From Bacteroidota bacterium (GTDB taxonomy: Bacteria > Bacteroidota > Ignavibacteria > Kapaibacteriales > UBA961), in assembly GCA_018266765.1 (NCBI GenBank), contig JAFDZU010000050.1, forward strand, positions 1 to 32,146: a stretch of 32,146 nt of DNA, read 5' to 3'. The notes beneath the pieces are model-generated. The model searched no databases, had not been told where the DNA came from, and was given only the letters and a program-made list of their open reading frames with translations. Positions 1,692 through 20,739 of this stretch are shown here, one piece after another (positions within the stretch are counted from its first letter, which is position 1; the number at the start of each line of letters is the position of its first letter). The translations under genes and the position numbers were made by a program.

Positions 1692-4343
1692 ATGAAAAAG
1701 ATACTACTTATATTAGCTCTAGGGATTTTAGAATCAATTAATCTTTTATCTCAGGGTACTCCAAATTGGCGAGAAGTTGGCAATTTATCAATAGCTCGTA
1801 CTCGTCACGAATCTGTGTATATTGGTTATAGTAAAATACTTGTATTTGGAGGAACTACACCATCAAACATTACAAATACAGCAGAAATAGTTGATGTTGA
1901 TAAAAATATTATTGTTAATGCTAACCCAATGAAAACACCACGTGCTGAGTTTGCATCATTAGTTACTATTGATAGTTTAGTTTTAGCTATTGGAGGTGTT
2001 ACTTATCAAGACGACGTAACTTCCTCAATCGAAGCTTACGATATTAAAACAGGTATTTGGTCAAATTTTGGCAGTCTTATACAACCTCGAAGGCAATTCA
2101 CAGTGATTTGGTTGAATTCCACTGAATTTTTAGCAGTTGGTGGACGAGAGTTTGGAACCCAAACCATTAAATCAGCCGAAATATTTAATATTACAACACA
2201 AACTTCTAGGCGAATAGCCGATTATCCTGTTTATTGTAATAACCCTGTTTCCGGATACTCTTCTCAAGGTATTCCAATTGTATTTGGAGGACGCGAAGGA
2301 GGCACAGGTAGTAATCAATCCGATAATGTTTATTATTATAACCAACTAATTAATCAATGGGAAGTTGTTGGTCAAATGGTTAGATCTTCAGAATTTCCAC
2401 CTACTATTAAATTGTGGGATGGAAGAGTCGTTTATACGGGTGGAAACAACGAAATTCAGCGACCTTCAGATTGGTTAAACGATATTGCCATTGAGAATAA
2501 CAATACTTTTACACTTTTGGCTAGAATGAAAACCGGAAGACATATACATTTTTTATCTCAATGGAATACTACAACTTTATTAACAGGTGGAGGTATGTCA
2601 GGTTCTCCATTCGGAAGTAAATCATTGAATAGTACTGAATGGATAAACATTATAACAAAAAAAGTAACAGATGGTCCTCAAATGAATCATCCACACGCCC
2701 AACCTTCGTTTCTGACTATTCCCATTTATGCCAATGGACTTCCAATAGCATCAAAAATTGTAGTAATATCGGGGTTTGGAGAAGATTTTAAGTTTACCCA
2801 ATCCGTAGAAATTCTTGAAGAAAAAATTACTCCTTGTGATAATTCCTATAATTCTAAGTTATTACCTAACATATATGTTCCAATAGAATCTATATCAAAT
2901 AATAGAATTCAAATAACCACCTCAATTGCAGCCGACCTTTGCCCTGGTAACAAGCTGCTAATAATTCAGATGCGTGGAGCAGAAGTAGATTCAAAATCTG
3001 GAGATACGTATGGAAAAATTACATCGTATTCTGATGCAGGAAATTATGAGTTTACACGTATTAGTTCAATTAATGGTAATTCAATAACTCTTGAAAAGCC
3101 ACTTACACGTTCGTATAATCCTGCGGGCAAAGTACAGATTGTTCGTGTACCTGAATTCAATAATTATACAGTATCTGACAAAATTATATGCCCAAAATGG
3201 AATGATACAATTTATGGAGTTCTTGCCTTTTCTGTTTCAGACACGTTAAGAATCCGTCAACAAATTAATGCTGATGGTGCAGGATTTTCCGGTGGCCGTG
3301 CTGTCAATTCTGACACAACAGCTCAAGAACATTTAGATAACTATTTTGGTAGTATAGACCCGTCGCGTTATGCTCAAAAAGGTGACGGTTTGGCTAACTA
3401 CCTTAGTGATGAGCATCGTTCTGCTCGTGGAGCATTAGCTAATTCTGGTGGTGGTGGTAACAATCATAATGCAGGTGGAGGTGGAGGTTCAAATGGAGGT
3501 TGCGGTGGTAAAGGTGGTTATGGTTGGGATTTGATGCTTAAAGGAAGCAAAGAATTAGCTCAAGGATTGGGTGGTTATGCCTTAGATAATTCGAGTAATA
3601 AAATATTTATGGGAGGTGGTGGTGGTGCCGGACATTCAAACGAACAAACAGGAACGAGTGGTGGTAACGGAGGTGGGATTATTATCATTGATGCAAAGGT
3701 AATAATAAATGAAGGTGGAATGATATCTGCAAATGGAAACTCTGTAAAAAACGCTCCGTATGACGGTGCAGGTGGTGGCGGCGGCGGCGGAACTGTTATT
3801 ATTAAAACTGAAAGTGTCCCTAAACAACTACCAATCGAAATATATGGAGGTAGTGGTGGTGGTGTTACTGTCCATAAAGATGGTCCGGGTGGTGGTGGTG
3901 GTGGTGGAGTCGTATGGTTTTCATTACCGGTTGAATCCATGAACGCATCAATAGAAAACAGAGGTGGTTACGGTGGAAAAAGCAGAACATTAGATGATTA
4001 TGGTCAAACTGACGGATGTGCAGGAAAAATTCTCACTAAATTGGAAATTCCGGGTGATAATACAGTCAGAGATGTAAGCGAATCAAACGTTAATTCGCAA
4101 AAAGGAACGTCAACAGTGTATCCCCTACCGGCTGATGAATTAGTTACGATTCATTTTGATAATCAATTTTTTGGAACAGATTGTTCAGTTTTTGATTTAT
4201 TAGGAAATTATATTGCAAATGGGAAAAGTCTCGCTAATGGTGATTGGCAAATAGATGTAAGCAAACTTTATTCAGGTGTTTTCTTTGCAATCACTAAGAA
4301 TGCTTCCGAAAGTAAAATGGTAAGAGTTATAGTTCGACATTAA
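1692..4343 (+). CDS. Secreted kelch-repeat, glycine-rich protein with T9SS sorting domain
   Basis: The 883-residue protein opens with a typical signal peptide (MKKILLILALGILESINLLSQ). About residues 24-375 form a kelch-type beta-propeller: repeated blocks such as ILVFGGTT, VLAIGGVTY, FLAVGGREF, PIVFGGREG and VVYTGGNNE, each followed by a W or F strand. Residues about 380-525 form an unassigned beta-rich segment with two cysteines. Residues about 529-760 are extremely rich in glycine, with runs of GGGGG. The last 80 residues look like a Por/T9SS type A sorting domain (VYPLPADELVTIHFD, VFDLLGNYIANG, LYSGVFFAI, MVRVIV), with PLPAD in place of the usual PNP. The protein is probably carried across the outer membrane by the type IX system and held on the surface. 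The molecular function of the propeller is unknown. Confidence 0.85.
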   Translation: MKKILLILALGILESINLLSQGTPNWREVGNLSIARTRHESVYIGYSKILVFGGTTPSNITNTAEIVDVDKNIIVNANPMKTPRAEFASLVTIDSLVLAIGGVTYQDDVTSSIEAYDIKTGIWSNFGSLIQPRRQFTVIWLNSTEFLAVGGREFGTQTIKSAEIFNITTQTSRRIADYPVYCNNPVSGYSSQGIPIVFGGREGGTGSNQSDNVYYYNQLINQWEVVGQMVRSSEFPPTIKLWDGRVVYTGGNNEIQRPSDWLNDIAIENNNTFTLLARMKTGRHIHFLSQWNTTTLLTGGGMSGSPFGSKSLNSTEWINIITKKVTDGPQMNHPHAQPSFLTIPIYANGLPIASKIVVISGFGEDFKFTQSVEILEEKITPCDNSYNSKLLPNIYVPIESISNNRIQITTSIAADLCPGNKLLIIQMRGAEVDSKSGDTYGKITSYSDAGNYEFTRISSINGNSITLEKPLTRSYNPAGKVQIVRVPEFNNYTVSDKIICPKWNDTIYGVLAFSVSDTLRIRQQINADGAGFSGGRAVNSDTTAQEHLDNYFGSIDPSRYAQKGDGLANYLSDEHRSARGALANSGGGGNNHNAGGGGGSNGGCGGKGGYGWDLMLKGSKELAQGLGGYALDNSSNKIFMGGGGGAGHSNEQTGTSGGNGGGIIIIDAKVIINEGGMISANGNSVKNAPYDGAGGGGGGGTVIIKTESVPKQLPIEIYGGSGGGVTVHKDGPGGGGGGGVVWFSLPVESMNASIENRGGYGGKSRTLDDYGQTDGCAGKILTKLEIPGDNTVRDVSESNVNSQKGTSTVYPLPADELVTIHFDNQFFGTDCSVFDLLGNYIANGKSLANGDWQIDVSKLYSGVFFAITKNASESKMVRVIVRH
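3447..3912 (+). repeat. GGT/GGA-rich low-complexity tract coding for polyglycine
   Basis: Within the kelch protein gene, clusters of GGT, GGA and GGC codons encode five or more runs of four to seven glycines, separated by ordinary blocks of 20 to 40 residues. The strand is strikingly G-rich in an otherwise AT-rich region. The complementary strand reads as polyproline, which produces long but meaningless antisense frames. Codon choice within the runs is mixed, so this looks like selection on the protein and not simple trinucleotide expansion. Confidence 0.85.
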
Positions 4344-4441
4344 AAACATAAATTCAATTACTTCTTTAAATAAAAAGAAGTTAAGCGCATATTATTTGTA
4401 TGTTTCCTGTGTAGCAATTTAACAGTAAAATAATTAAGATT

Positions 4442-4473
4442 AAAAGCCGTGCTATTTACTATCGCGGCTTTTT
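4442..4473 (+). terminator. Intrinsic terminator after the kelch/T9SS gene
   Basis: AAAAGCCG (4442-4449) pairs with CGGCTTTT (4465-4472); the stem extends inward by a T-G and a G-C pair, and the T-run follows directly. Both the left arm and the right flank match the terminator at 747-778 almost base for base, while the inner pairs differ in a compensatory way. A weaker upstream hairpin (ACTTCTTT/AAAGAAGT, 4360-4381) has no T-run. Confidence 0.85.
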
Positions 4474-4474
4474 G

Positions 4475-4482
4475 TATTTTTG
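4475..4482 (+). promoter_or_regulatory. Candidate -7 element TATTTTTG for the Asp-box gene at 4511
   Basis: TATTTTTG matches the Bacteroidota -7 consensus TAnnTTTG and sits 28 bases before the ATG at 4511, directly after a terminator hairpin. No TTTG -33 element is present 19-21 bases upstream, so the site is only a candidate. Confidence 0.3.
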
Positions 4483-4510
4483 AAAACAATTACTAAAGGA
4501 ATAAATTACA

Positions 4511-5758
4511 ATGCATTCAACGATTTTCAAATATATATTTATATCATTACTTACTATAATTTCTTTCAACACAGCTAATTCAAAAGAAATTTGGGAAAGA
4601 ACCGGTACGTTTGACGGTGAAAAGTCAGGAGTTGTACTTTCTATTGGAACTTCAAAGAATGGAAATGTTTTTGCTTGTGTCAACACCGGAGCTCCTGTTT
4701 TTCAGTCAACAAATAGCGGAAAATCTTGGCAAAAGTCTACTCTTCCTTCAAATAATTACATAAATGATTTTGCCACAAAAGATACAATGATGTTTGCCGC
4801 TTCACTCAACGGCATTTTTCGTTCATTTGACAATGGTTTAACATGGAAATTATCAAATTCAGGACTAACTACCTTAAATATAAAATCTATTATTGTTACT
4901 TCTAATGGAATACTATTTGCAGGAACTCGTGGGAACGGAATTTTTCGTTCCAATAACAATGGTGACACTTGGATTCCTTCAAATAAAGGTTTATCCAACT
5001 TAAAAATTAATGCTATAGTATCGCTTGACAGCAATAATTTAATTGTAGCTACCGATGGTGAGGGATTATTTTTCACTAAAAACGGAGGTAGTACTTGGGA
5101 AGCAGGCAGTTCAGAAGTTCGATTAAATTATGTATTGACTCTTGCTATCTCACCTAAAGGGTATCTCTATGCAGGTACTGATAATTATGGTGTATTTAGA
5201 ACTAAGAATATGGGGAATTCGTGGGAAGAAATGATGGCAGATATTACTGGTAAGGTAAATTACATCTCAATTACTCCTAATAATAAAATTTATGTTGGTA
5301 CATTTGAAAAAGGAATATTCTATTCTTCTGACGATGGAAATACATGGACAGTTGAGAACGAAGGTATTGATAATGAACCAATTGCAGTATACTGTTTAGC
5401 TATTGCACCAAATGGTGATGTATATGCAGGAACCGGCGGAGGTGGTGTCTATCGAAGAACAATCGTTAATGGAATTAATGATGAAAAAGATTTTACAATT
5501 ACTAACTTTAATATCAGAACTACAAATAAAAATAATATTTATACTACATTTAGTGTTAGAAGTAGAGGTTTGATAAACTGTACTTTGTATTCCGTCTTGG
5601 GCGAAAGAATTACTGAACTTATCAACGAAACTTTCGTCGAAGGAAAATATGATATTGAAGTAAATTCAAATTCTGCATTGTCATCATTACATGGTATTTA
5701 TTATTGTAGATTCACAACATCTAATTTCAACCAGACAAAATTAATCTATTTTCCATAA
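4511..5758 (+). CDS. Secreted Asp-box (BNR/sortilin-like) beta-propeller protein, T9SS-like C-terminus
   Basis: The 415-residue protein starts with a signal peptide (about residues 1-24, ending FNTANS). Residues about 28-320 carry six Asp-box motifs of the SxDxGxTW type (STNSGKSW, SFDNGLTW, SNNNGDTW, TKNGGSTW, TKNMGNSW, SSDDGNTW). They alternate with strands of the form GYLYAGTDNYGVFRT, which fits a beta-propeller of the YCF48/sortilin kind. The last 85 residues have the strand pattern of a T9SS sorting domain (CTLYSVLGERI, GIYYCRFTT, KLIYF) but lack a clear PNP motif. The fold is confident; the ligand or activity is unknown. Asp boxes occur in sialidases and carbohydrate-binding proteins, but no sialidase catalytic residues are apparent. 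It is a tandem paralogue of the next gene, starting 60 bases downstream. Confidence 0.82.
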   Translation: MHSTIFKYIFISLLTIISFNTANSKEIWERTGTFDGEKSGVVLSIGTSKNGNVFACVNTGAPVFQSTNSGKSWQKSTLPSNNYINDFATKDTMMFAASLNGIFRSFDNGLTWKLSNSGLTTLNIKSIIVTSNGILFAGTRGNGIFRSNNNGDTWIPSNKGLSNLKINAIVSLDSNNLIVATDGEGLFFTKNGGSTWEAGSSEVRLNYVLTLAISPKGYLYAGTDNYGVFRTKNMGNSWEEMMADITGKVNYISITPNNKIYVGTFEKGIFYSSDDGNTWTVENEGIDNEPIAVYCLAIAPNGDVYAGTGGGGVYRRTIVNGINDEKDFTITNFNIRTTNKNNIYTTFSVRSRGLINCTLYSVLGERITELINETFVEGKYDIEVNSNSALSSLHGIYYCRFTTSNFNQTKLIYFP

Positions 5759-5818
5759 GAATTTAATTTCTAAACAATAAAAAATTAATTTCATTATTCA
5801 GTTTTCGAGGAAATTTCA

Positions 5819-7435
5819 ATGAGTATTATTTCTATTTCAGTTCGCATTTTTACCGTTATTTGTTTTATTTCTGCGACTTCTATACCTACTATAGCCCAAG
5901 ATTATTGGGAAAAATTAGCAAGCCCCCCAAGTGCCCATCCCGGTCCCTTATCAGTATCTAAAATCCTTATTACAAAACAAGGAACTTATCTTTGTGCAAC
6001 TTCTGAAGGTTCTGGAGTTTACAGGTCTGTTAATCGTGGAACTTCGTGGATAACATCAACTCCCTATGTCAATTACGACCATGGGATTACTTACTGTGTT
6101 AATCTTACAGGCGATATATTTGTTGTTACTAATAATGCTAATGGAGGAAACGAGATTACAAAAATAGGTCGCTCAACTGATGATGGTGTTAGCTACAAAA
6201 ACCAACCTGCATATCCATCTAATAAAACTGTGAATTCGATGATTTGTACTTCTACCGGTACTTTATTTATTGGAACAAATCGAGATGGAATTTATCGTTC
6301 TACCGACGATGCAGCAAGCTGGCAACATATAGAATTTAAAGCAATAACAGACTCCTCTACAACATGTCTTTTAGATGGTGATAATGGAATTATTTATGCT
6401 GGCACAAATGCCGATGGAATTTATCAAAGTAAAAACAATGGTGATACATGGACACCTCTTTATTATAATATAACACTATCCAATATTAAAAGTTTGGCAA
6501 AAGACAAAAATGGATATTTATATGCTGGTTCTAATTATGGTGCATATCGTTCTAAAGACGCCGGAATAACTTGGGAAGAAATCTTCAGTTCAGGTTCATC
6601 AGGCAGTACAGCTGTTTCAGATATTATTGTTACTTCACAAGGCAGAATTTATCTTACAATGCTTGGAAACGGTACTTACTGTTCAATAGATAATGGTAAA
6701 TCTTGGACACAACTTATAACAGGATTTAAATCTAATAATGTAAATACAATAGCAGTCGACTCTACCGGAAACTTTCTTGTAGGAACTTCATTAGATATGT
6801 ATCGAAATACTAATGCTCCTGTTTTGAATGCTTCTATAGATATAAACAATCAAGAAATTAATTTTGGTGATTTAACCTATCCTGAACAAAAAGATAGTAT
6901 AATTACAATAACAAATATTGGCAATAGTATGTTAGAAGTAAGTAATATGTCAATAAACGGGATTAGTGCTGCTTCTTTCCAAATTACGCCATCTTCAGCA
7001 TTTTCACTTTCATCAGGTCAATCTAAACAAATAACTATTCACTGTAAACCTAATAAAAATGGTGATTTAGAAGCGAATTTGAAATTTACTAGTAATTCTG
7101 CCGGTGAAACTTCAGAGATACGATTGTTAGGTTTTTCTTCAGGAGTAAACGGTATAAATGAAATGGAAGACTTTCCATTTACAGGTAATCTTTCACCCAA
7201 TCCAAGTGTTGGAAATGGAACATTTACGCTTACATCTGAAAAAAATTCAAATGGAACTTTTTCTATATTCAACATGTTAGGAATATCAGTATTTTCCCGT
7301 GAATTTACAATTACAAGTAATGCTCCCCTTATGCTGCATTGGAATATTCCTTTCTCTAATTCAGCAGGATTATATCAAGGAATATTTACAATTGGACATA
7401 AATCCGTATCAATTCCAATAATAGTAATTCGATAA
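5819..7435 (+). CDS. Secreted Asp-box beta-propeller protein with choice-of-anchor D and T9SS domains
   Basis: The 538-residue protein has an N-terminal signal peptide (ending SIPTIAQ). Six Asp boxes lie in residues about 30-330 (SVNRGTSW, STDDGVSY, STDDAASW, SKNNGDTW, SKDAGITW, SIDNGKSW). A choice-of-anchor D/HYDIN-like Ig domain follows at about residues 340-440 (INFGDLTYPEQKDSIITITN, FQITPSSAFSLSSGQSKQI, CKPNKNGDLEANLKF). The C-terminus from about residue 452 is a T9SS type A sorting domain with the diagnostic LSPNPSVGNGTFTL and FSIFNMLGISVF strands. It resembles the preceding gene in its propeller and probably arose with it by duplication, with the anchor domain as the extra module. nadD starts 25 bases after the stop. 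Surface exposure is inferred from the sorting domain; activity is unknown. Confidence 0.85.
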   Translation: MSIISISVRIFTVICFISATSIPTIAQDYWEKLASPPSAHPGPLSVSKILITKQGTYLCATSEGSGVYRSVNRGTSWITSTPYVNYDHGITYCVNLTGDIFVVTNNANGGNEITKIGRSTDDGVSYKNQPAYPSNKTVNSMICTSTGTLFIGTNRDGIYRSTDDAASWQHIEFKAITDSSTTCLLDGDNGIIYAGTNADGIYQSKNNGDTWTPLYYNITLSNIKSLAKDKNGYLYAGSNYGAYRSKDAGITWEEIFSSGSSGSTAVSDIIVTSQGRIYLTMLGNGTYCSIDNGKSWTQLITGFKSNNVNTIAVDSTGNFLVGTSLDMYRNTNAPVLNASIDINNQEINFGDLTYPEQKDSIITITNIGNSMLEVSNMSINGISAASFQITPSSAFSLSSGQSKQITIHCKPNKNGDLEANLKFTSNSAGETSEIRLLGFSSGVNGINEMEDFPFTGNLSPNPSVGNGTFTLTSEKNSNGTFSIFNMLGISVFSREFTITSNAPLMLHWNIPFSNSAGLYQGIFTIGHKSVSIPIIVIR

Positions 7436-13852: not shown

Positions 13853-16800
13853 TTATTCTGTATCTTGTGAAGGGGGAGGATTAAGAGGCAATCGAACAGT
13901 AAAAACAGTTCCGACTCCAACTTTACTTTTTGCTTCAATAGTGCCACCGTGAAATTCAAGCATATCTCTTACAATTGATAATCCCAACCCAGTACCAGTT
14001 ACCAAACCTACATTAGAACCTCTGAAAAATGGAGAAAATAAATGTTTCATTTCCTCATCAGGAATGCCAATTCCACTATCGGTTACTTGTATTATGACAA
14101 AATCATCTCCTTCGGAGCGAAGTGTTAACATTATATTTTTATTTGTAGCAGAATATTTAGATGCATTTGTTAATAAATTTATTATTATCTGTTTTATCAT
14201 CCTTTTATCACCTTGGATTTCTGGTAAGTTTTTTGGTAAAGTAATTACGAGATTTTGTGATTTAGTATTGAGTATTCCATGAAGTTCCGAGTGAATTCTA
14301 TTCACCATCTCATCAAGATTGATTTTTTCGGGAATAAATTTATCCTTGAAAGATTGAATTGAAGATTGAAGTAAAAAGTCATTCATCAGCTCAGTCAGGT
14401 CTTGAATTCTTGACTTTATTTTATCGATTTCACCTATTCTTTGTCCAAAATCTAATTTAGATGCATAAGCAGCAAGTAAATCTGCTGAAATTTGAATTCC
14501 CGTTAATGGAGTACGGAATTCATGAGAAATAGTGGTAATAAACTGCGTTTTCATTGCATTTAATTCACGTTCTTTAGCGAGTGTTTTTTGTAATTCTTCT
14601 TCACTTTGTTTTCTCTGAGTTATATCATATAAAAATATGCGAATTGTTGAAGTATCAGGAACGAAAAACACACGTTCATCAAACACATGGTTATTAATAT
14701 ATATTTCCCTCTGCAATGGATTATTCGGTTGTTTAATAAGCTCATCCATTTGTTCAAAGAGCCCGGCAAATATTGGACTGTTTAACTGTTGTGACTTCAC
14801 ATCAGGAAAAAATTTTTTTGCTTCAGCATTACAATATGTTATTTCTCCGCCTTGTGAAAGTTCGAATATTGGTTGAGGATTCTGTTCAGGAAATGATGCA
14901 AGATGATGAAGAATTTGTTCTGATTTTTTACGTTTAGAGATATCTACCGCTGCTTGAATTGTTACAACAACCCCGTCAGGACGAACAAATTTTGTGATAT
15001 GATTTTCAAGCCATATATACTGACCATTTTTACGTTTGAAACGATAATCTATATCAAAATTAGTGAATTCTCCTTCTAATTTAATACTATCAAATTTTTC
15101 CAAAACATGTTTTAAATCATCAGGATGTATAAAGTTAGGGTTTTCTTTCAACATTTCATATTGCCATTCTTCTTGTGTAAACCCCGATTGTTTTATAAAT
15201 TCAGCATTAACATAATCAATATGAATTTCTTTTCCAGGAAATCTTGAAGATTGAGATACTCCAAGCGGCAATGAATTAGCGAGAAACCGAAATTTATTTT
15301 CACTTTCTTTCAATTTTTTCTCGGCTTCTTTTTGCAGTGTAATATCAACGGCCGAACCAACTATTTCAGTTACTTTTCCATTTTCGAACAATGGCTCTAA
15401 AGTAAAAAAATAATATTTATTACCAGGTATTTCGGACTCAAACGAAACAGATTCTCCTGCAAAAACTTTATGAAGATGTGGCAATACTTTAGTTTGGTAT
15501 TCTATACCAAATAATTTACTTGGTGTCTCACCTTGTATAAGCTCAGTAGTAAAATCTCCGGCTAATTTACCTTCACGTAATGAATATACATACTCACCAT
15601 CTTCACGACGATACATTTTAATAATTAAATTTTGAAGATTCTTTACAGTTCTTCTGAAATCTTCTCGTTGTGCTTGGGCAAGAGCCGCTTCAGCTCGTTT
15701 TAAGTCGGTAATATCTACAGATATTTGTGTGATTGTTTCCGGAAGACCTGTTATCAGATTGTGTTCAGCAAAACAATATACTTCTGTCCAAATTATTTCA
15801 TTTTTTTTACCAATATTACGATACTGAGTCTTCAATACGTCTTTAGCACCAGATTGAATCCATTTTGTGGCTTCGGTTATTTGTCGTTCTCGGTCGTCAG
15901 GATGAAAAATTGATGATGCTTCCTCAATACTCAGTTTAGAAAATTCATCAATAGTTAAACCTATTTGTTTTTCAAATTCTTTATTAGCAAATTCGTATTT
16001 ATGTTCATCAATAATCCATCGAACAATTCCGACCGGAGCGTTTTCAACCAAATTTTTATATTTTTGAGAACTCTTCTCGATATGTAAATTTGCAGCTATT
16101 CTTTCTGTTATTTCTGAAATTGTACCAACTGTACCAATAATTATACCATCAACATTTCTAAAAGGAGCAGCATTAATTTCCAACCATTTTTCTTGGTTGT
16201 AAGGGGTTTTAATTTTTACTAAATATTGTTCTGATATTCCTTTTAATCTTCTTTCCAACCTTGCTAGGTATTCATTATTATTTTCACCTTCATTTAAAAC
16301 TAAAATTGATGAATTTTTACCAATCAAATCATCAGAATTTAATCCAAATATTTCTGATATTCGGTTATTCACAAATTCAATGTTTCCCTCTGTATCAGTT
16401 AAAACAATACCTTCATTCAAACTTTGCATTATTGTTCGAAGTTTAAGTTCACTTTCTATCAGGGCTTCCTCTGTAAGACGTTTTTCGGTAACGTCATTTG
16501 TAAATGTAAGAATAACTCTTTCATTATTTAAAACTATTATAACAGATGAAATTTCTACGTCTTTAACTTCTTTGTTAAGATTTTTGATTTTTATTAATGC
16601 CGGTTGTAGTATTTTTCCTTCTTGTAACATCATTGATATCCGATTTTTTACTAAATCTACTGATTCAGGAAGTAAAAACTCTATTGGACTTAATCCTAAC
16701 AGTTGAGATTCATTTTCTGCCCCTATAAACTTTAAACCCGCATTATTAGCATAAATGATAGTCTCTTTATGAATAAAAATAGGAATTGGTAAATCATAAA

Positions 16801-18352
16801 TTATTGTTCTAAATCGTTCTTCGCTTTCTTGGAGATTTTGTTTGGCAACAATTCGATTTGTAACATCATTTTGCATTCCGATAAAATGGGTAATATTTCC
16901 TTTATCATCTTTCACTGGTGATACAGCAAGTTCATTCCAAAACATGGTACCGTCTTTTTTATAATTCCTAAGGATAGTTTTTACATGTTTACCTTCAACA
17001 ATTGCATCGTATAACTCTTTAATTCCCGGTTGGTTTTTATCATCATTTTGTAAAAATTTACAATTTCTACCTAAAATTTCTTCATCTGAATACCCTGTTA
17101 TAGTTTGAGCAGCAGTATTTACATAAATTATAGGGTTATTAAGTTGGGTAGCATCAGAAATCATAATTCCTGTGAGTGACTCTTCTATAGCACGGTCTTT
17201 GATGTAAAGTTCATGCAATGTTTTAATTTTTTCAGTGATATCTCTCACTATCACTACAACACTATTTTCAGTAGAATAGGCTACCCGCGCTTCGTGATAA
17301 AATAATCCGTTTGCTTGTTGTAACTCAAATTCAAATGTTATAGTTTTGCGATCAGAAATAGATTGATGAATTGCTTCTAAGGTTTGCATTGCCACTTTTT
17401 TCGGCAAAAAATCTTTGATGTTTTTTCCAATAAACTCTTCTGGAGGAGCAAGAGGTTCAATACCGTGCCCTGCACGATAATCAATATAAGTACCTTTATT
17501 ATCAAGATAAAGAATCATATCAGGGATTGCATTTAAAAGTGAACTTTTATAACGTTCGCTTTTAATCAAAGCATTCTGTATTTCTATTCTGTCTGTTATA
17601 TCTCTAAATGCAAATATTTCGTGATACTCACCCAATGGATTATCCTTGAGAAAGGACGCACTGCCTTCAATTGGGATTCTTTTGCCTGATTTTGATTTAA
17701 TCCAAATTGTTGATGGAAGATTCTGGCGATTATTGAGACGTAACAATTCTAATTGTTCATCTGAATTAAATTTAGAAGTATCTGCAAAATTAAAAACTTC
17801 CTCAAATTTTTTACCAATTCCCAGTGAACTTGACCATTCGGTAATAGATTCGGCAAATGAATTCATAAAAACTATACGACCTTTTTTGTCTGTAGCAATA
17901 ACTCCTTCTCCTATAGAATCTAAAGTTGCCGAGAGCAATTTCATATTTTCTCGTTCACGATTTTCCATCCGTTGTTTATATACTGCCATTTCCATTGTAA
18001 TTCGAAGTTCATCTTCTTGAAATGGTTTGAGTAAGTATCCCATTGCACCAACTTGTTTTGCTCTATTGATGATACTGTCATTTGAATATGCAGTAAGGAA
18101 AATTAATGCGACATTGTAGATTGTGATTAAAGTTTTAGCCGTTTCTATCCCATCGAGTTCACTTTTGAGCATGATATCCATCAAAACAATTGTAGGACAG
18201 TCTTTCCTAACTGTTTGTTCAAACAAATGAATAGCTTCTTCGCCTGATGAAGCGATATCTACATTATGATATCCCAGTTTTTCGAGAATAATAACAATAT
18301 TTTTTGCAACTATTTGTTCATCTTCTACAATTAAAACTCTAATTTCACCCAT
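13853..18352 (-). CDS. LOV-containing REC-(PAS)9-histidine kinase (hybrid sensor kinase)
   Basis: The 1499-residue cytoplasmic protein has no membrane segment. An N-terminal receiver domain (1-125) has Asp59 in VLMDIML as phosphoacceptor, with D11, T87 and K109. Nine PAS domains follow, at about 138-255, 266-375, 388-500, 508-622, 632-752, 762-885, 895-1006, 1015-1140 and 1148-1245. The third is a LOV domain: NNPIIYVN, GRNCKFLQ with Cys431, N463 in LRNY, N473 in FWNEL and Q494 in FIGMQ. It would bind FMN and form a Cys adduct in blue light; Lys432 replaces the usual Arg. The HisKA phospho-His is H1277 (ISHEFRTPL). The HATPase has N1396, DSGIGIP and GTGLGLSI. AGGA lies shortly upstream of the ATG, and the frameshifted kinase ends 18 bases upstream. 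No output domain is present, so signals must leave by phosphotransfer. Confidence 0.93.
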   Translation of the reverse strand: MGEIRVLIVEDEQIVAKNIVIILEKLGYHNVDIASSGEEAIHLFEQTVRKDCPTIVLMDIMLKSELDGIETAKTLITIYNVALIFLTAYSNDSIINRAKQVGAMGYLLKPFQEDELRITMEMAVYKQRMENRERENMKLLSATLDSIGEGVIATDKKGRIVFMNSFAESITEWSSSLGIGKKFEEVFNFADTSKFNSDEQLELLRLNNRQNLPSTIWIKSKSGKRIPIEGSASFLKDNPLGEYHEIFAFRDITDRIEIQNALIKSERYKSSLLNAIPDMILYLDNKGTYIDYRAGHGIEPLAPPEEFIGKNIKDFLPKKVAMQTLEAIHQSISDRKTITFEFELQQANGLFYHEARVAYSTENSVVVIVRDITEKIKTLHELYIKDRAIEESLTGIMISDATQLNNPIIYVNTAAQTITGYSDEEILGRNCKFLQNDDKNQPGIKELYDAIVEGKHVKTILRNYKKDGTMFWNELAVSPVKDDKGNITHFIGMQNDVTNRIVAKQNLQESEERFRTIIYDLPIPIFIHKETIIYANNAGLKFIGAENESQLLGLSPIEFLLPESVDLVKNRISMMLQEGKILQPALIKIKNLNKEVKDVEISSVIIVLNNERVILTFTNDVTEKRLTEEALIESELKLRTIMQSLNEGIVLTDTEGNIEFVNNRISEIFGLNSDDLIGKNSSILVLNEGENNNEYLARLERRLKGISEQYLVKIKTPYNQEKWLEINAAPFRNVDGIIIGTVGTISEITERIAANLHIEKSSQKYKNLVENAPVGIVRWIIDEHKYEFANKEFEKQIGLTIDEFSKLSIEEASSIFHPDDRERQITEATKWIQSGAKDVLKTQYRNIGKKNEIIWTEVYCFAEHNLITGLPETITQISVDITDLKRAEAALAQAQREDFRRTVKNLQNLIIKMYRREDGEYVYSLREGKLAGDFTTELIQGETPSKLFGIEYQTKVLPHLHKVFAGESVSFESEIPGNKYYFFTLEPLFENGKVTEIVGSAVDITLQKEAEKKLKESENKFRFLANSLPLGVSQSSRFPGKEIHIDYVNAEFIKQSGFTQEEWQYEMLKENPNFIHPDDLKHVLEKFDSIKLEGEFTNFDIDYRFKRKNGQYIWLENHITKFVRPDGVVVTIQAAVDISKRKKSEQILHHLASFPEQNPQPIFELSQGGEITYCNAEAKKFFPDVKSQQLNSPIFAGLFEQMDELIKQPNNPLQREIYINNHVFDERVFFVPDTSTIRIFLYDITQRKQSEEELQKTLAKERELNAMKTQFITTISHEFRTPLTGIQISADLLAAYASKLDFGQRIGEIDKIKSRIQDLTELMNDFLLQSSIQSFKDKFIPEKINLDEMVNRIHSELHGILNTKSQNLVITLPKNLPEIQGDKRMIKQIIINLLTNASKYSATNKNIMLTLRSEGDDFVIIQVTDSGIGIPDEEMKHLFSPFFRGSNVGLVTGTGLGLSIVRDMLEFHGGTIEAKSKVGVGTVFTVRLPLNPPPSQDTE

Positions 18353-18370: not shown

Positions 18371-18985
18371 TTAATTACCGACAAAATCAATACTAATTTC
18401 TGTTCCACCATACTTTGTTTCTTTACCACAATGTATACGGATATTTCCACCTAATTGAACTGTAAGCATTTGAACTAATTGTAATCCTAGAGTTGCCGGA
18501 TTATCAATGATCTTTACATCCGATATACCTAATCCATTGTCAGAAACAACCAAATGAATTTGAGACTTATCGCTGAAAGTACGAAAGATAGTTAAAGCAA
18601 TTTTACAAATATTCTCATTTCCCTGAGAATATTTTAATGCGTTGGAAACTAACTCATTTATAATAAGTCCACATGGAACAGCCAAATCAACAGATAAGTC
18701 AAATTCTTCTACTTCAATACAAAACTCTACCGAATTATTATAACTATGGTATGTTCTCTCTAAGAATTGAACGAGATAATGAACATAAGTCTTTAAATTA
18801 ATTGCTCCAACATCAAATGATCTATACAGTTGTTCATGGATTAAAGCCATAGTACGAACTCTACTTTGGCTATCATTAAAAATCGCAAGCATTTGTTTAT
18901 CAGTGATTTGTTCTGCTTGAAGATTAAGCAAACTCGATATTATTTGCAAGTTGTTTTTTACTCGATGGTGAATTTCTTTTAGCAA
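18371..18985 (-). CDS. C-terminal part (HisKA_2-HATPase) of a frameshifted GAF/PAS histidine kinase
   Basis: This frame encodes the kinase core. HisKA_2 helix [20 protein letters not shown] contains the phospho-His (codon 18970-18968, residue 591 of the reconstructed protein). The HATPase has [20 protein letters not shown] and the [14 protein letters not shown] end. The TTG at 18985 is not a convincing start: the frame is open upstream to at least 19147 and encodes the rest of PAS3 and the linker ([31 protein letters not shown]). The whole is one 789-residue kinase interrupted by a one-base frameshift at 19147-19153. HisKA_2 kinases typically signal to separate receivers, and the next gene, 18 bases on, begins with a receiver domain. 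It is functional only if the shift is a sequencing error or is bypassed. Confidence 0.8.
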
Positions 18986-19071
18986 TAATTCTTTTTCATG
19001 TAGTGATTTTTGAAGCGTCAGTTCAGCATTTTTTCTTTCGGTTATTTCACGTGAATATCCTTCATAATATG

Positions 19072-20739
19072 CTATTTTTTCGGTATTTGAGGTTTCTTCG
19101 TATACAGCTCGAGCGCCTTGTGTAAACCATACAATTTCACCATTTCTTTTTTTCCTTGGAATTCAAATCCACTAATATGACCATGTTTATTGAGTAAATC
19201 TATGAACTCACTCCTTGATTCTGGGAGCACGTAATTATCCATTGCATCTCGAGATTCCATCAATTCTTCCGGGGAATCAAAACCTAACATCGAAGCCATT
19301 GTCTTATTAACACTTAAGAATTCGCCGGTTGGTAATACCTGAAATATTCCAATGATGGCATTTTGAACAATACTTCTATAATTATGTTCTGCTTTTTCTA
19401 ATCGAGCTTGAACTGTTTTCCTTTTGGTGATATTTAATCCACTAAAGCATATTTGAGTAACCTCTCCATTATCGCTTACAATTGGAACAAAACTTATTTC
19501 GATCCATACTTTCCTACTATTATATGTTTTTAATTCTATCTCTGATACTATATGACTTTTTCCTGAAAAAGCTATATCACAAAATTCTCTGTACTGTTGT
19601 TGATATTCTTTTGATAAAATCTGTAATATACAATCTCCTTCAACTAAATCCTTACCCCAAAAAGAAATTGAACCAATTTGTGCTACTCGATTAAATGCAA
19701 GAATATTTAACTTTTTATCTAATAGAATAAACGCTTGCAAACTATTATTGAACAACGCATTGAGATGTGAGTTAGTTTCGCGAAGTTTTTCTTCATTATT
19801 TCTACGATGAGTGATATCAATTAACACTCCTGAAATGTACCAATTATTTTTATTAACATCTGTTTTGACACATACAGCCAAATCATTTATCCAAATATAC
19901 TCACCATTGGCATGGAGGCATCTAAATTCTAAATTTAAGACACCCAAATAGTCATTTTGTTCCCATTTTTGAAATTCTAAATCTATAGTTTTAAAATCAT
20001 CAGGGTGAATTAGTCCAACAAAATAACTAACATCTACTAAATATTTTTCAATGGGATAACCAAGCATTCCAACAATATTATTTGAAATATATTCTCGTTC
20101 CTTGTCATGAAGGATTTCTTTGTGAATACTTGTTTCATATAAAACTATCCCCGGAAGTTTTTCAAGCATTGATGAAAGTCTGAATTCAGTTCTGATTAGT
20201 TGTAATTCTAGAATTCTTTGCTCGATTTGTGCCGCTTTTTGTTGACGAATGATACCTCTGCGAACATCAAGATGTTCTGCAGCTTGGCGTGCCAATGCTT
20301 CCATCGCATCTACTTCAAGCGAAGTAAATTTTCTTGGTAAAAAATCTACTGCACATACCGAACCTAAAATAAGATTTTCTTTGTTTTTAATAGGAATACT
20401 TATACACGATCTGAGATTTAAATCTCCTGTTACAAATGGGTTATGTCGTAATAGCTCGTGTTCTTCTAAGTTTTCTGTTATTAATCTCTCACCCGACTGA
20501 ATCATTACAGTACAAAAAGAAATCTCTCGAGGAATACTTTTGAGTTCAATACCGGTTATAGATTTAAACCATTGAATCTCACTGTCTATAAAACCCACGA
20601 AAGCAATAGGAGCTTTACATATTACAGATGCAAGCAAGGCAATATCGTCAAAAATCTGCTCATTAACCGAGCCGATAATCTGCAATTCATTAACAGCTGC
20701 TATGCGATCTGCTTCAGTTGAATGAGTATAAAATTTCAT
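19072..20739 (-). CDS. N-terminal part (GAF-PAS-PAS-PAS) of a frameshifted sensor histidine kinase
   Basis: The frame gives 555 residues, of which the first 531 are in the original phase. Residues about 15-165 are a GAF domain of the kind found in front of GGDEF and kinase proteins ([55 protein letters not shown]). PAS1 spans about 185-312 ([22 protein letters not shown]). PAS2 spans about 325-440 and PAS3 starts at about 450 ([22 protein letters not shown]). PAS3 is cut by the frameshift in the GFEFQGKK strand; the last 24 residues ([10 protein letters not shown] onward) are out of phase and spurious. The true product would continue into the HisKA_2-HATPase frame. No membrane segment is present, so it senses a cytoplasmic signal of unknown nature. 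It starts 19 bases after the pdxH stop. Confidence 0.88.
19147..19153 (-). other. Frameshift site: A7 run, candidate -1 slippery heptamer
   Basis: On the coding (minus) strand, seven A residues follow GG. In the upstream frame they read A AAA AAA and are followed by G. Reading one A twice (equivalent to inserting one A) joins the GAF/PAS frame to the kinase-core frame without loss: the residues become [20 protein letters not shown], an ordinary PAS sequence. Without the shift, 25 off-frame codons run to a stop at 19072. The cause may be an indel error in a homopolymer, a real inactivating mutation, or ribosomal or transcriptional slippage. Confidence 0.88.

What the first reader, a model, noticed from the sequence alone, without database searches (positions are those of the whole stretch)
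16853..17189. Canonical LOV blue-light domain hidden among nine PAS domains
The third PAS unit (residues about 388-500) of the 1499-residue kinase has GRNCKFLQ with Cys431. From that Cys, Gln435 (+4), Asn463 (+32), Asn473 (+42) and Gln494 (+63) fall at the same offsets as the flavin-binding residues of oat phototropin LOV2 (C450, Q454, N482, N492, Q513). The strand NYKKDGTMFWNEL also closely resembles my memory of B. subtilis YtvA. Lys432 replaces the common Arg next to the Cys. The kinase should therefore respond to blue light. A short LOV domain placed in the middle of a long PAS chain, behind a receiver domain, is an unusual setting. The domain identity is strong; light regulation of the kinase is inference.
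Basis: partly seen in the sequence, partly recalled or inferred. Interest (0 to 1): 0.75.

Follow-up and report, generated by a model that had tools for sequence, protein, structure and literature searches.

The report
Blue-light LOV sensor in multi-PAS kinase
This bacterial signalling kinase really does contain a blue-light sensor of the known LOV type; it appears to have been added, inside a three-domain block, to an older kinase that related bacteria carry without it, so it is a well-supported new example of a known kind rather than something new in principle.

Summary
Residues 388-500 of the 1499-aa minus-strand kinase (13853-18352) form a LOV domain. Solved LOV structures are the top sequence hits (E 1.3e-31) and the top fold hits (Z 22.1, rmsd 1.2 A) of a pLDDT-95.5 model. 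In a tree of 105 domains it sits among LOVs, apart from its neighbour PAS domains (98/83). Cys431, Gln435, Asn463, Asn473 and Gln494 match AsLOV2 C450, Q454, N482, N492 and Q513.

Besides Lys432 for the first FMN-phosphate arginine, the second (AsLOV2 R467) is Tyr448. Both orthologues keep both arginines, so flavin binding is likely but not certain here.

LOV inside long PAS chains is not unusual. Cyanobacteria and Herpetosiphon have LOV proteins of 1600-2155 aa. The N-terminal receiver is rarer.

New: all three genus members keep the LOV kinase, while sister-genus homologues lack exactly the PAS2-LOV-PAS4 block, so the light sensor looks like a genus-level insertion into an older REC-multi-PAS kinase. 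An adjacent HisKA_2 kinase gene, intact in G001 and frameshifted in the window, is a likely donor to the REC domain. Light control of the kinase remains inference.

The parts
16853..17191 (-). LOV domain, residues 388-500; photoactive Cys431 codon at 17060-17062
13853..18352 (-). 1499-aa kinase: REC, PAS1, PAS2, LOV, PAS4-PAS9, HisKA, HATPase_c
18002..18337 (-). receiver domain (residues 6-117), acidic residues 10-11, Asp59, Thr87, Lys109 present
16475..17569 (-). three-unit block PAS2-LOV-PAS4 (residues 262-626) that is absent from sister-genus homologues
15308..15685 (-). PAS7 (residues 890-1015): most conserved PAS unit, marks an order-wide kinase family
13880..14554 (-). HisKA (His1277) and HATPase_c (N1396, DSGIG 1425, GTGLGLS 1453)
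18371..20739 (-). upstream partner gene GAF-PAS-PAS-PAS-HisKA_2-HATPase, broken into 19072-20739 and 18371-18985 by a one-base frameshift at a run of seven A (near 19150)

Best explanation
Residues 388-500 are a functional blue-light LOV domain that supplies a light input to a soluble receiver-multi-PAS histidine kinase. Most likely flavin mononucleotide binds in the pocket. Blue light forms a Cys431-flavin adduct, and Gln494 passes the change to the beta sheet and the DVT motif at the LOV exit. The change then travels through the 28-residue helical linker into PAS4 and down the chain to the HisKA dimer, where it raises or lowers autophosphorylation of His1277. The receiver at the N terminus is probably phosphorylated by the HisKA_2 kinase encoded just upstream, so the protein would combine light, that partner's signal and whatever the other PAS domains sense. 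Shown here: domain identity, residues, intact kinase and receiver motifs, conservation in the genus, and presence of the LOV block only in this genus among the homologues compared. Inferred: flavin binding, photocycle, direction of control, partner phosphotransfer and target.
For: Top PDB sequence hits are LOV proteins, E 1.3e-31 to about 8e-22 among the 60 rows shown. The NCBIfam YtvA and blue-light kinase models match the domain at 4e-41 and 7e-35. Model pLDDT is 95.5; the best fold match is the Meiothermus ruber LOV domain, Z 22.1, rmsd 1.2 A over 136 residues, and every row listed is a LOV structure. In the tree LOVs separate from 13 own-genome PAS domains at 98/83, and the window joins its two orthologues at 100/99. 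The flavin and cysteine residues are kept in window, G001 and G002. The LOV kinase is in 3 of 3 genus genomes. dN/dS of the LOV part is about 0.09. Kinase and receiver catalytic residues are present. Five of the eight PAS-to-PAS junctions, the LOV exit included, are exactly 28 residues from DIT motif to next domain, as expected for helical signal transfer. The partner HisKA_2 gene is adjacent in all three genomes. It is the only LOV in this genome; no phytochrome or BLUF domain was found, and a photolyase-family protein is present.
Against: Both FMN-phosphate arginines are changed in this species (K432, Y448), which could lower flavin affinity; the second change is not conservative. Six PAS units and 781 residues separate the LOV exit from His1277, and the two-domain linkage known from engineered YHF (PMC6798134) does not show transfer over that distance. 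The partner kinase gene is frameshifted in the window. No response regulator gene lies next to the kinase. The model of PAS2-LOV-PAS4 has low confidence (pLDDT 57), so the linker geometry is not shown.
Confidence: 0.75

Rival explanations
1. LOV domain that binds flavin and photocycles, but whose main output is on the nearby N-terminal half: it gates phosphorylation of the receiver by the HisKA_2 partner rather than the distant HisKA domain.
For: LOV sits two PAS units from REC but six units from HisKA; the HisKA_2 partner gene is adjacent in all three species; the paralogous locus repeats the pairing of a HisKA_2 kinase with a REC-first multi-PAS kinase.
Against: Known dimeric LOV kinases pass the signal towards the C terminus through the J-alpha helix (PMC6798134, PMC13322254); the partner gene is frameshifted in the window, so in this strain it may not work.
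Confidence: 0.12
2. LOV domain in decline in this species: descended from a photosensor, with Cys kept, but flavin loading poor because both phosphate arginines are lost, so it acts mainly as a structural PAS spacer.
For: K432 and Y448 differ only in the window's species; a paralogue in the genus shows LOV domains that did lose Cys, the phosphate Arg and Gln, and its own-genome counterpart has no LOV; the partner gene is broken here.
Against: Cys, Gln435, both Asn and Gln494 are all kept; dN/dS in the window's LOV is about 0.09-0.13, close to the protein average of 0.10-0.11; Lys432 and Lys439 may still hold the phosphate; 12 of 91 other domains in the LOV alignment also lack Arg/Lys at the second place.
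Confidence: 0.12
3. Generic PAS domain that resembles LOV by chance or binds flavin as a redox sensor without light function.
For: LOV is a subfamily of PAS; flavin-based redox PAS sensors such as NifL also match (77 bits).
Against: Tree, fold and residue tests all place it in LOV with the photoactive Cys; NifL scores far lower than YtvA (77 against 141 bits).
Confidence: 0.03

Closest known systems
LOV histidine kinases (Brucella LOV-HK, Meiothermus ruber and Chloroflexus aggregans LOV kinases)
   Same: Same LOV fold and flavin residues, kinase output, LOV N-terminal of the kinase
   Different: Here the LOV is the third of nine PAS units, behind a receiver and 781 residues before the phospho-accepting His; Brucella LOV-HK has LOV-PAS-HK (construct titles)
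Long multi-PAS LOV proteins of cyanobacteria (Scytonema 1607 aa, Microcoleus 2155 aa) and of Herpetosiphon (1909 aa)
   Same: LOV-type domain inside a chain of several PAS domains, in several cases ahead of a histidine kinase
   Different: None of those has an N-terminal receiver in the same order; the Scytonema LOV-type domains lack the Cys
Bacillus subtilis YtvA and Pseudomonas short LOV proteins (PpSB1, PpSB2, PF5)
   Same: Closest in LOV sequence and fold
   Different: Those have an STAS output or no effector (own knowledge for YtvA); PpSB2 keeps both phosphate arginines R54 and R70 (PMC13322254), the window has K and Y there
REC-multi-PAS-HisKA kinases of the same order (G004, G009, G022)
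   Same: Same receiver, PAS5 to PAS9 and kinase core, PAS7 46-58% identical
   Different: No LOV; the PAS2-LOV-PAS4 block is absent in G004 and G009, and G022 has about two other units there

Membership tests
LOV domain | PAS fold matching solved LOV structures best | tested here: met
   pLDDT 95.5; Z 22.1, rmsd 1.2 A to MrLOVe; all 50 rows listed are LOV
LOV domain | Photoactive Cys in the GxNC(R/K)FLQ motif | tested here: met
   GRNCKFLQ, Cys431; kept in G001 and G002
LOV domain | Flavin-ring contacts: Gln after the motif, two Asn, and Gln in strand I-beta | tested here: met
   Q435, N463, N473, Q494 at AsLOV2 454, 482, 492, 513
LOV domain | Arginines at the FMN phosphate (usual, not universal) | tested here: inconclusive
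   K432 for R451 keeps charge, Y448 for R467 does not; 12 of 91 other aligned domains also lack Arg/Lys at the second site
LOV domain | Phylogenetic grouping with LOV rather than with other PAS | tested here: met
   98/83 split, 98% of 200 bootstrap trees
LOV domain | Bound flavin and a reversible photocycle | not testable with these tools
   needs purified protein
LOV histidine kinase (general kind) | LOV upstream of HisKA and HATPase_c with intact catalytic residues | tested here: met
   HisKA 1.1e-11, HATPase_c 8.8e-29 for the whole protein; H1277, N1396, G1 and G2 boxes
LOV histidine kinase (general kind) | Light-dependent kinase activity | not testable with these tools
   needs a phosphorylation assay
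NCBIfam YtvA family (NF052652) and blue-light-activated histidine kinase (NF052306) | Whole-protein score over the curated cut-off (250 and 450 bits) | tested here: not met
   YtvA 150.4 bits for the whole protein; NF052306 120.4 bits on the LOV segment and not among the 25 families shown for the whole protein; so not filed under these equivalogs

The most novel reading that the evidence does not exclude
A three-domain light cassette (PAS2-LOV-PAS4) was inserted into an existing receiver-multi-PAS kinase and controls phosphotransfer between two kinases: blue light decides whether the HisKA_2 partner can phosphorylate the receiver, or how that phosphorylation is read by a kinase domain six PAS units away.
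Probability: 0.15. Interest if true: 0.6.

Novelty: new member of a known kind. Interest (0 to 1): 0.4.

Why it matters
It is a blue-light receptor in a little-studied Ignavibacteria-related lineage for which the literature searches made here turned up nothing. Close homologues exist with and without the LOV block (1499 aa against 1113-1118 aa). That makes a natural experiment on how a sensor inserted far from the catalytic domain comes to control a kinase, and on whether PAS chains carry signals over many units. The changed phosphate pocket (K432, Y448), against R and R in two congeners, is a ready-made test of what those arginines do for flavin loading and adduct lifetime.

Tried and rejected
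A generic PAS domain that only looks like LOV was rejected by tree, fold and profile, with PAS5 as a control. The idea that a LOV in a long PAS chain is itself unusual was rejected: 9-11 PAS-type units were counted in Scytonema and Microcoleus proteins. YtvA-family membership was rejected by the whole-protein cut-off. The PAS2-LOV-PAS4 structure model was too poor to use (three sequences, pLDDT 57). Literature searches for LOV in Ignavibacteria or Kapabacteria, and for R467, gave nothing of use; Glantz et al. 2016 is not held. Other photoreceptor classes in the genome: phytochrome and BLUF none, photolyase family one.

Full report
What was checked. The ORF 13853-18352 on the minus strand translates to 1499 residues. 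Every residue number in the finding is right: Cys431 is encoded at 17060-17062, and Gln435, Asn463, Asn473 and Gln494 follow at +4, +32, +42 and +63. Residues 388-500 occupy 16853-17191, two bases more than stated.

Is it LOV? Yes. Against all solved structures the domain's top hits are LOV proteins: Pseudomonas short LOV (E 1.3e-31), a Meiothermus kinase LOV, phototropin 2, Chloroflexus, YtvA, aureochrome and Brucella LOV-HK. As a control, PAS5 of the same protein reaches only 1.3e-4. NCBIfam places YtvA (4.1e-41) and blue-light histidine kinase (7.4e-35) first for the domain. An AlphaFold2 model with 62 aligned sequences has mean pLDDT 95.5. Foldseek and VIA-align rank LOV structures first, the best being Z 22.1, rmsd 1.2 A over 136 residues. 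A maximum-likelihood tree of 92 LOV-type and 13 own-genome PAS domains splits the two with support 98/83 and joins the window with its two orthologues at 100/99.

Pocket residues. All flavin-ring contacts and the cysteine are conserved. Two positions are not: Lys432 (AsLOV2 R451; 73 of 91 aligned domains have Arg, one has Lys) and Tyr448 (AsLOV2 R467; 70 Arg, 9 Lys, 12 others, no Tyr). These are the positions of the two phosphate arginines R54 and R70 that PpSB2-LOV keeps (PMC13322254). Both orthologues, G001 and G002, have Arg at both places, so the changes are specific to this species. Lys439 lies where slow PpSB1-LOV has R61, and Ile444 where it has R66; by the logic of PMC13322254 and PMC5314338 this predicts a fast-recovering domain (inference). 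W619_1-LOV loads poorly with flavin although it has all four arginines (PMC5314338), so loading cannot be read from arginines alone.

Architecture. REC (6-117, Asp59), PAS1, PAS2, LOV, PAS4 to PAS9, HisKA (His1277) and HATPase_c. Units 7 and 9 score below Pfam's cut-offs. Five of eight PAS-to-PAS junctions, the LOV exit included, are 28 residues from the DIT-type motif to the next domain (the domain starts were set by eye). The distance from LOV exit to the phospho-accepting His is 781 residues. Long PAS chains with a LOV-type domain occur elsewhere, so that part is not unusual; an N-terminal receiver ahead of a long chain was seen only in this genus among the 80 closest LOV proteins, with one short REC-LOV protein in Lyngbya. 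The 80 were chosen by similarity and one peptide pattern, so this is not a census.

Evolution. All three held genomes of the genus keep the LOV kinase. Both named relatives are Ignavibacteria: G002 corresponds to L049, an uncultured Ignavibacteria bacterium, and G004 to L124, UBA2373. PAS7 is the most conserved PAS unit (82% to G001; G001-G002 95%) and finds homologous kinases in 35 of 61 relatives. In the sister genus, G004 and G009 have REC-PAS1-PAS5-PAS6-PAS7-PAS8-PAS9-HK of 1113 and 1118 aa, lacking the PAS2-LOV-PAS4 block; the length difference, 381-386 aa, is three PAS units. The simplest reading is gain of a light-sensing block in this genus; loss elsewhere is not excluded. In the wider class, 18 of 391 genomes have a match of 100 bits or more to this LOV, and most fetched ones keep the Cys.

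Context. The next gene upstream in the direction of transcription encodes a GAF-PAS-PAS-PAS-HisKA_2 kinase. It is one open frame of at least 757 aa in G001, whose end overlaps the start region of the LOV kinase; in the window it is split by a frameshift at a run of seven A. A HisKA_2 kinase beside a REC-first multi-PAS kinase recurs at a paralogous locus, which suggests that the partner phosphorylates the receiver (inference). Downstream lies trmO on the other strand; no response regulator is adjacent. The genome has no other LOV, no phytochrome and no BLUF, but a photolyase-family protein.

Verdict. Real LOV domain; most likely a working blue-light input to a histidine kinase; a new member of a known kind. 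Strength by step: domain identity about 0.97; flavin binding and photocycle about 0.85; light control of the HisKA output about 0.65; receiver fed by the HisKA_2 partner about 0.5. The last three are inference.

Noticed in passing
18985-19154 (minus strand), run of seven A near 19150: The upstream GAF-PAS-HisKA_2 kinase is split by a one-base shift at seven A; the G001 homologue is one open frame and the cut G002 copy is open as far as held. True mutation, assembly error or slippage cannot be told apart here.
   Followed up: partly
L044 (G001 C271) and L045 (G002 C695): A paralogous REC-multi-PAS kinase in the two congeners carries three and two tandem LOV-like domains; only the last has NCRFLQ and Gln, the others have Arg at the Cys position (GKNRDYLQ, GKNRDFLQ, GRNRDFLK) and Leu or His at the Gln. 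The window genome's counterpart (C83, L048) has no LOV.
   Followed up: partly
15308-15685, residues 890-1015 (PAS7): A PAS-like unit with a weak Pfam match and no relative found by sequence among solved structures is the most conserved PAS unit and marks a kinase family found in 35 of 61 relatives of the order.
   Followed up: partly
L046 (G004), 3268-4941 and 5287-6648: A simpler PAS-LOV-HisKA-HATPase kinase (557 aa, Gln of strand I-beta replaced by Ala) lies just ahead of an NtrC-type response regulator: a compact light two-component pair in the same family.
   Followed up: no
L136 and L139: LOV-like domains of the same class with Gly or Leu at the Cys position (NGRILQ, NLRFLH).
   Followed up: no
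1-195: 69-base tandem repeat of an Asp-rich motif (calcium-binding-like) ahead of an OmpA-like C-terminal domain in the ORF that begins at the window edge.
   Followed up: no
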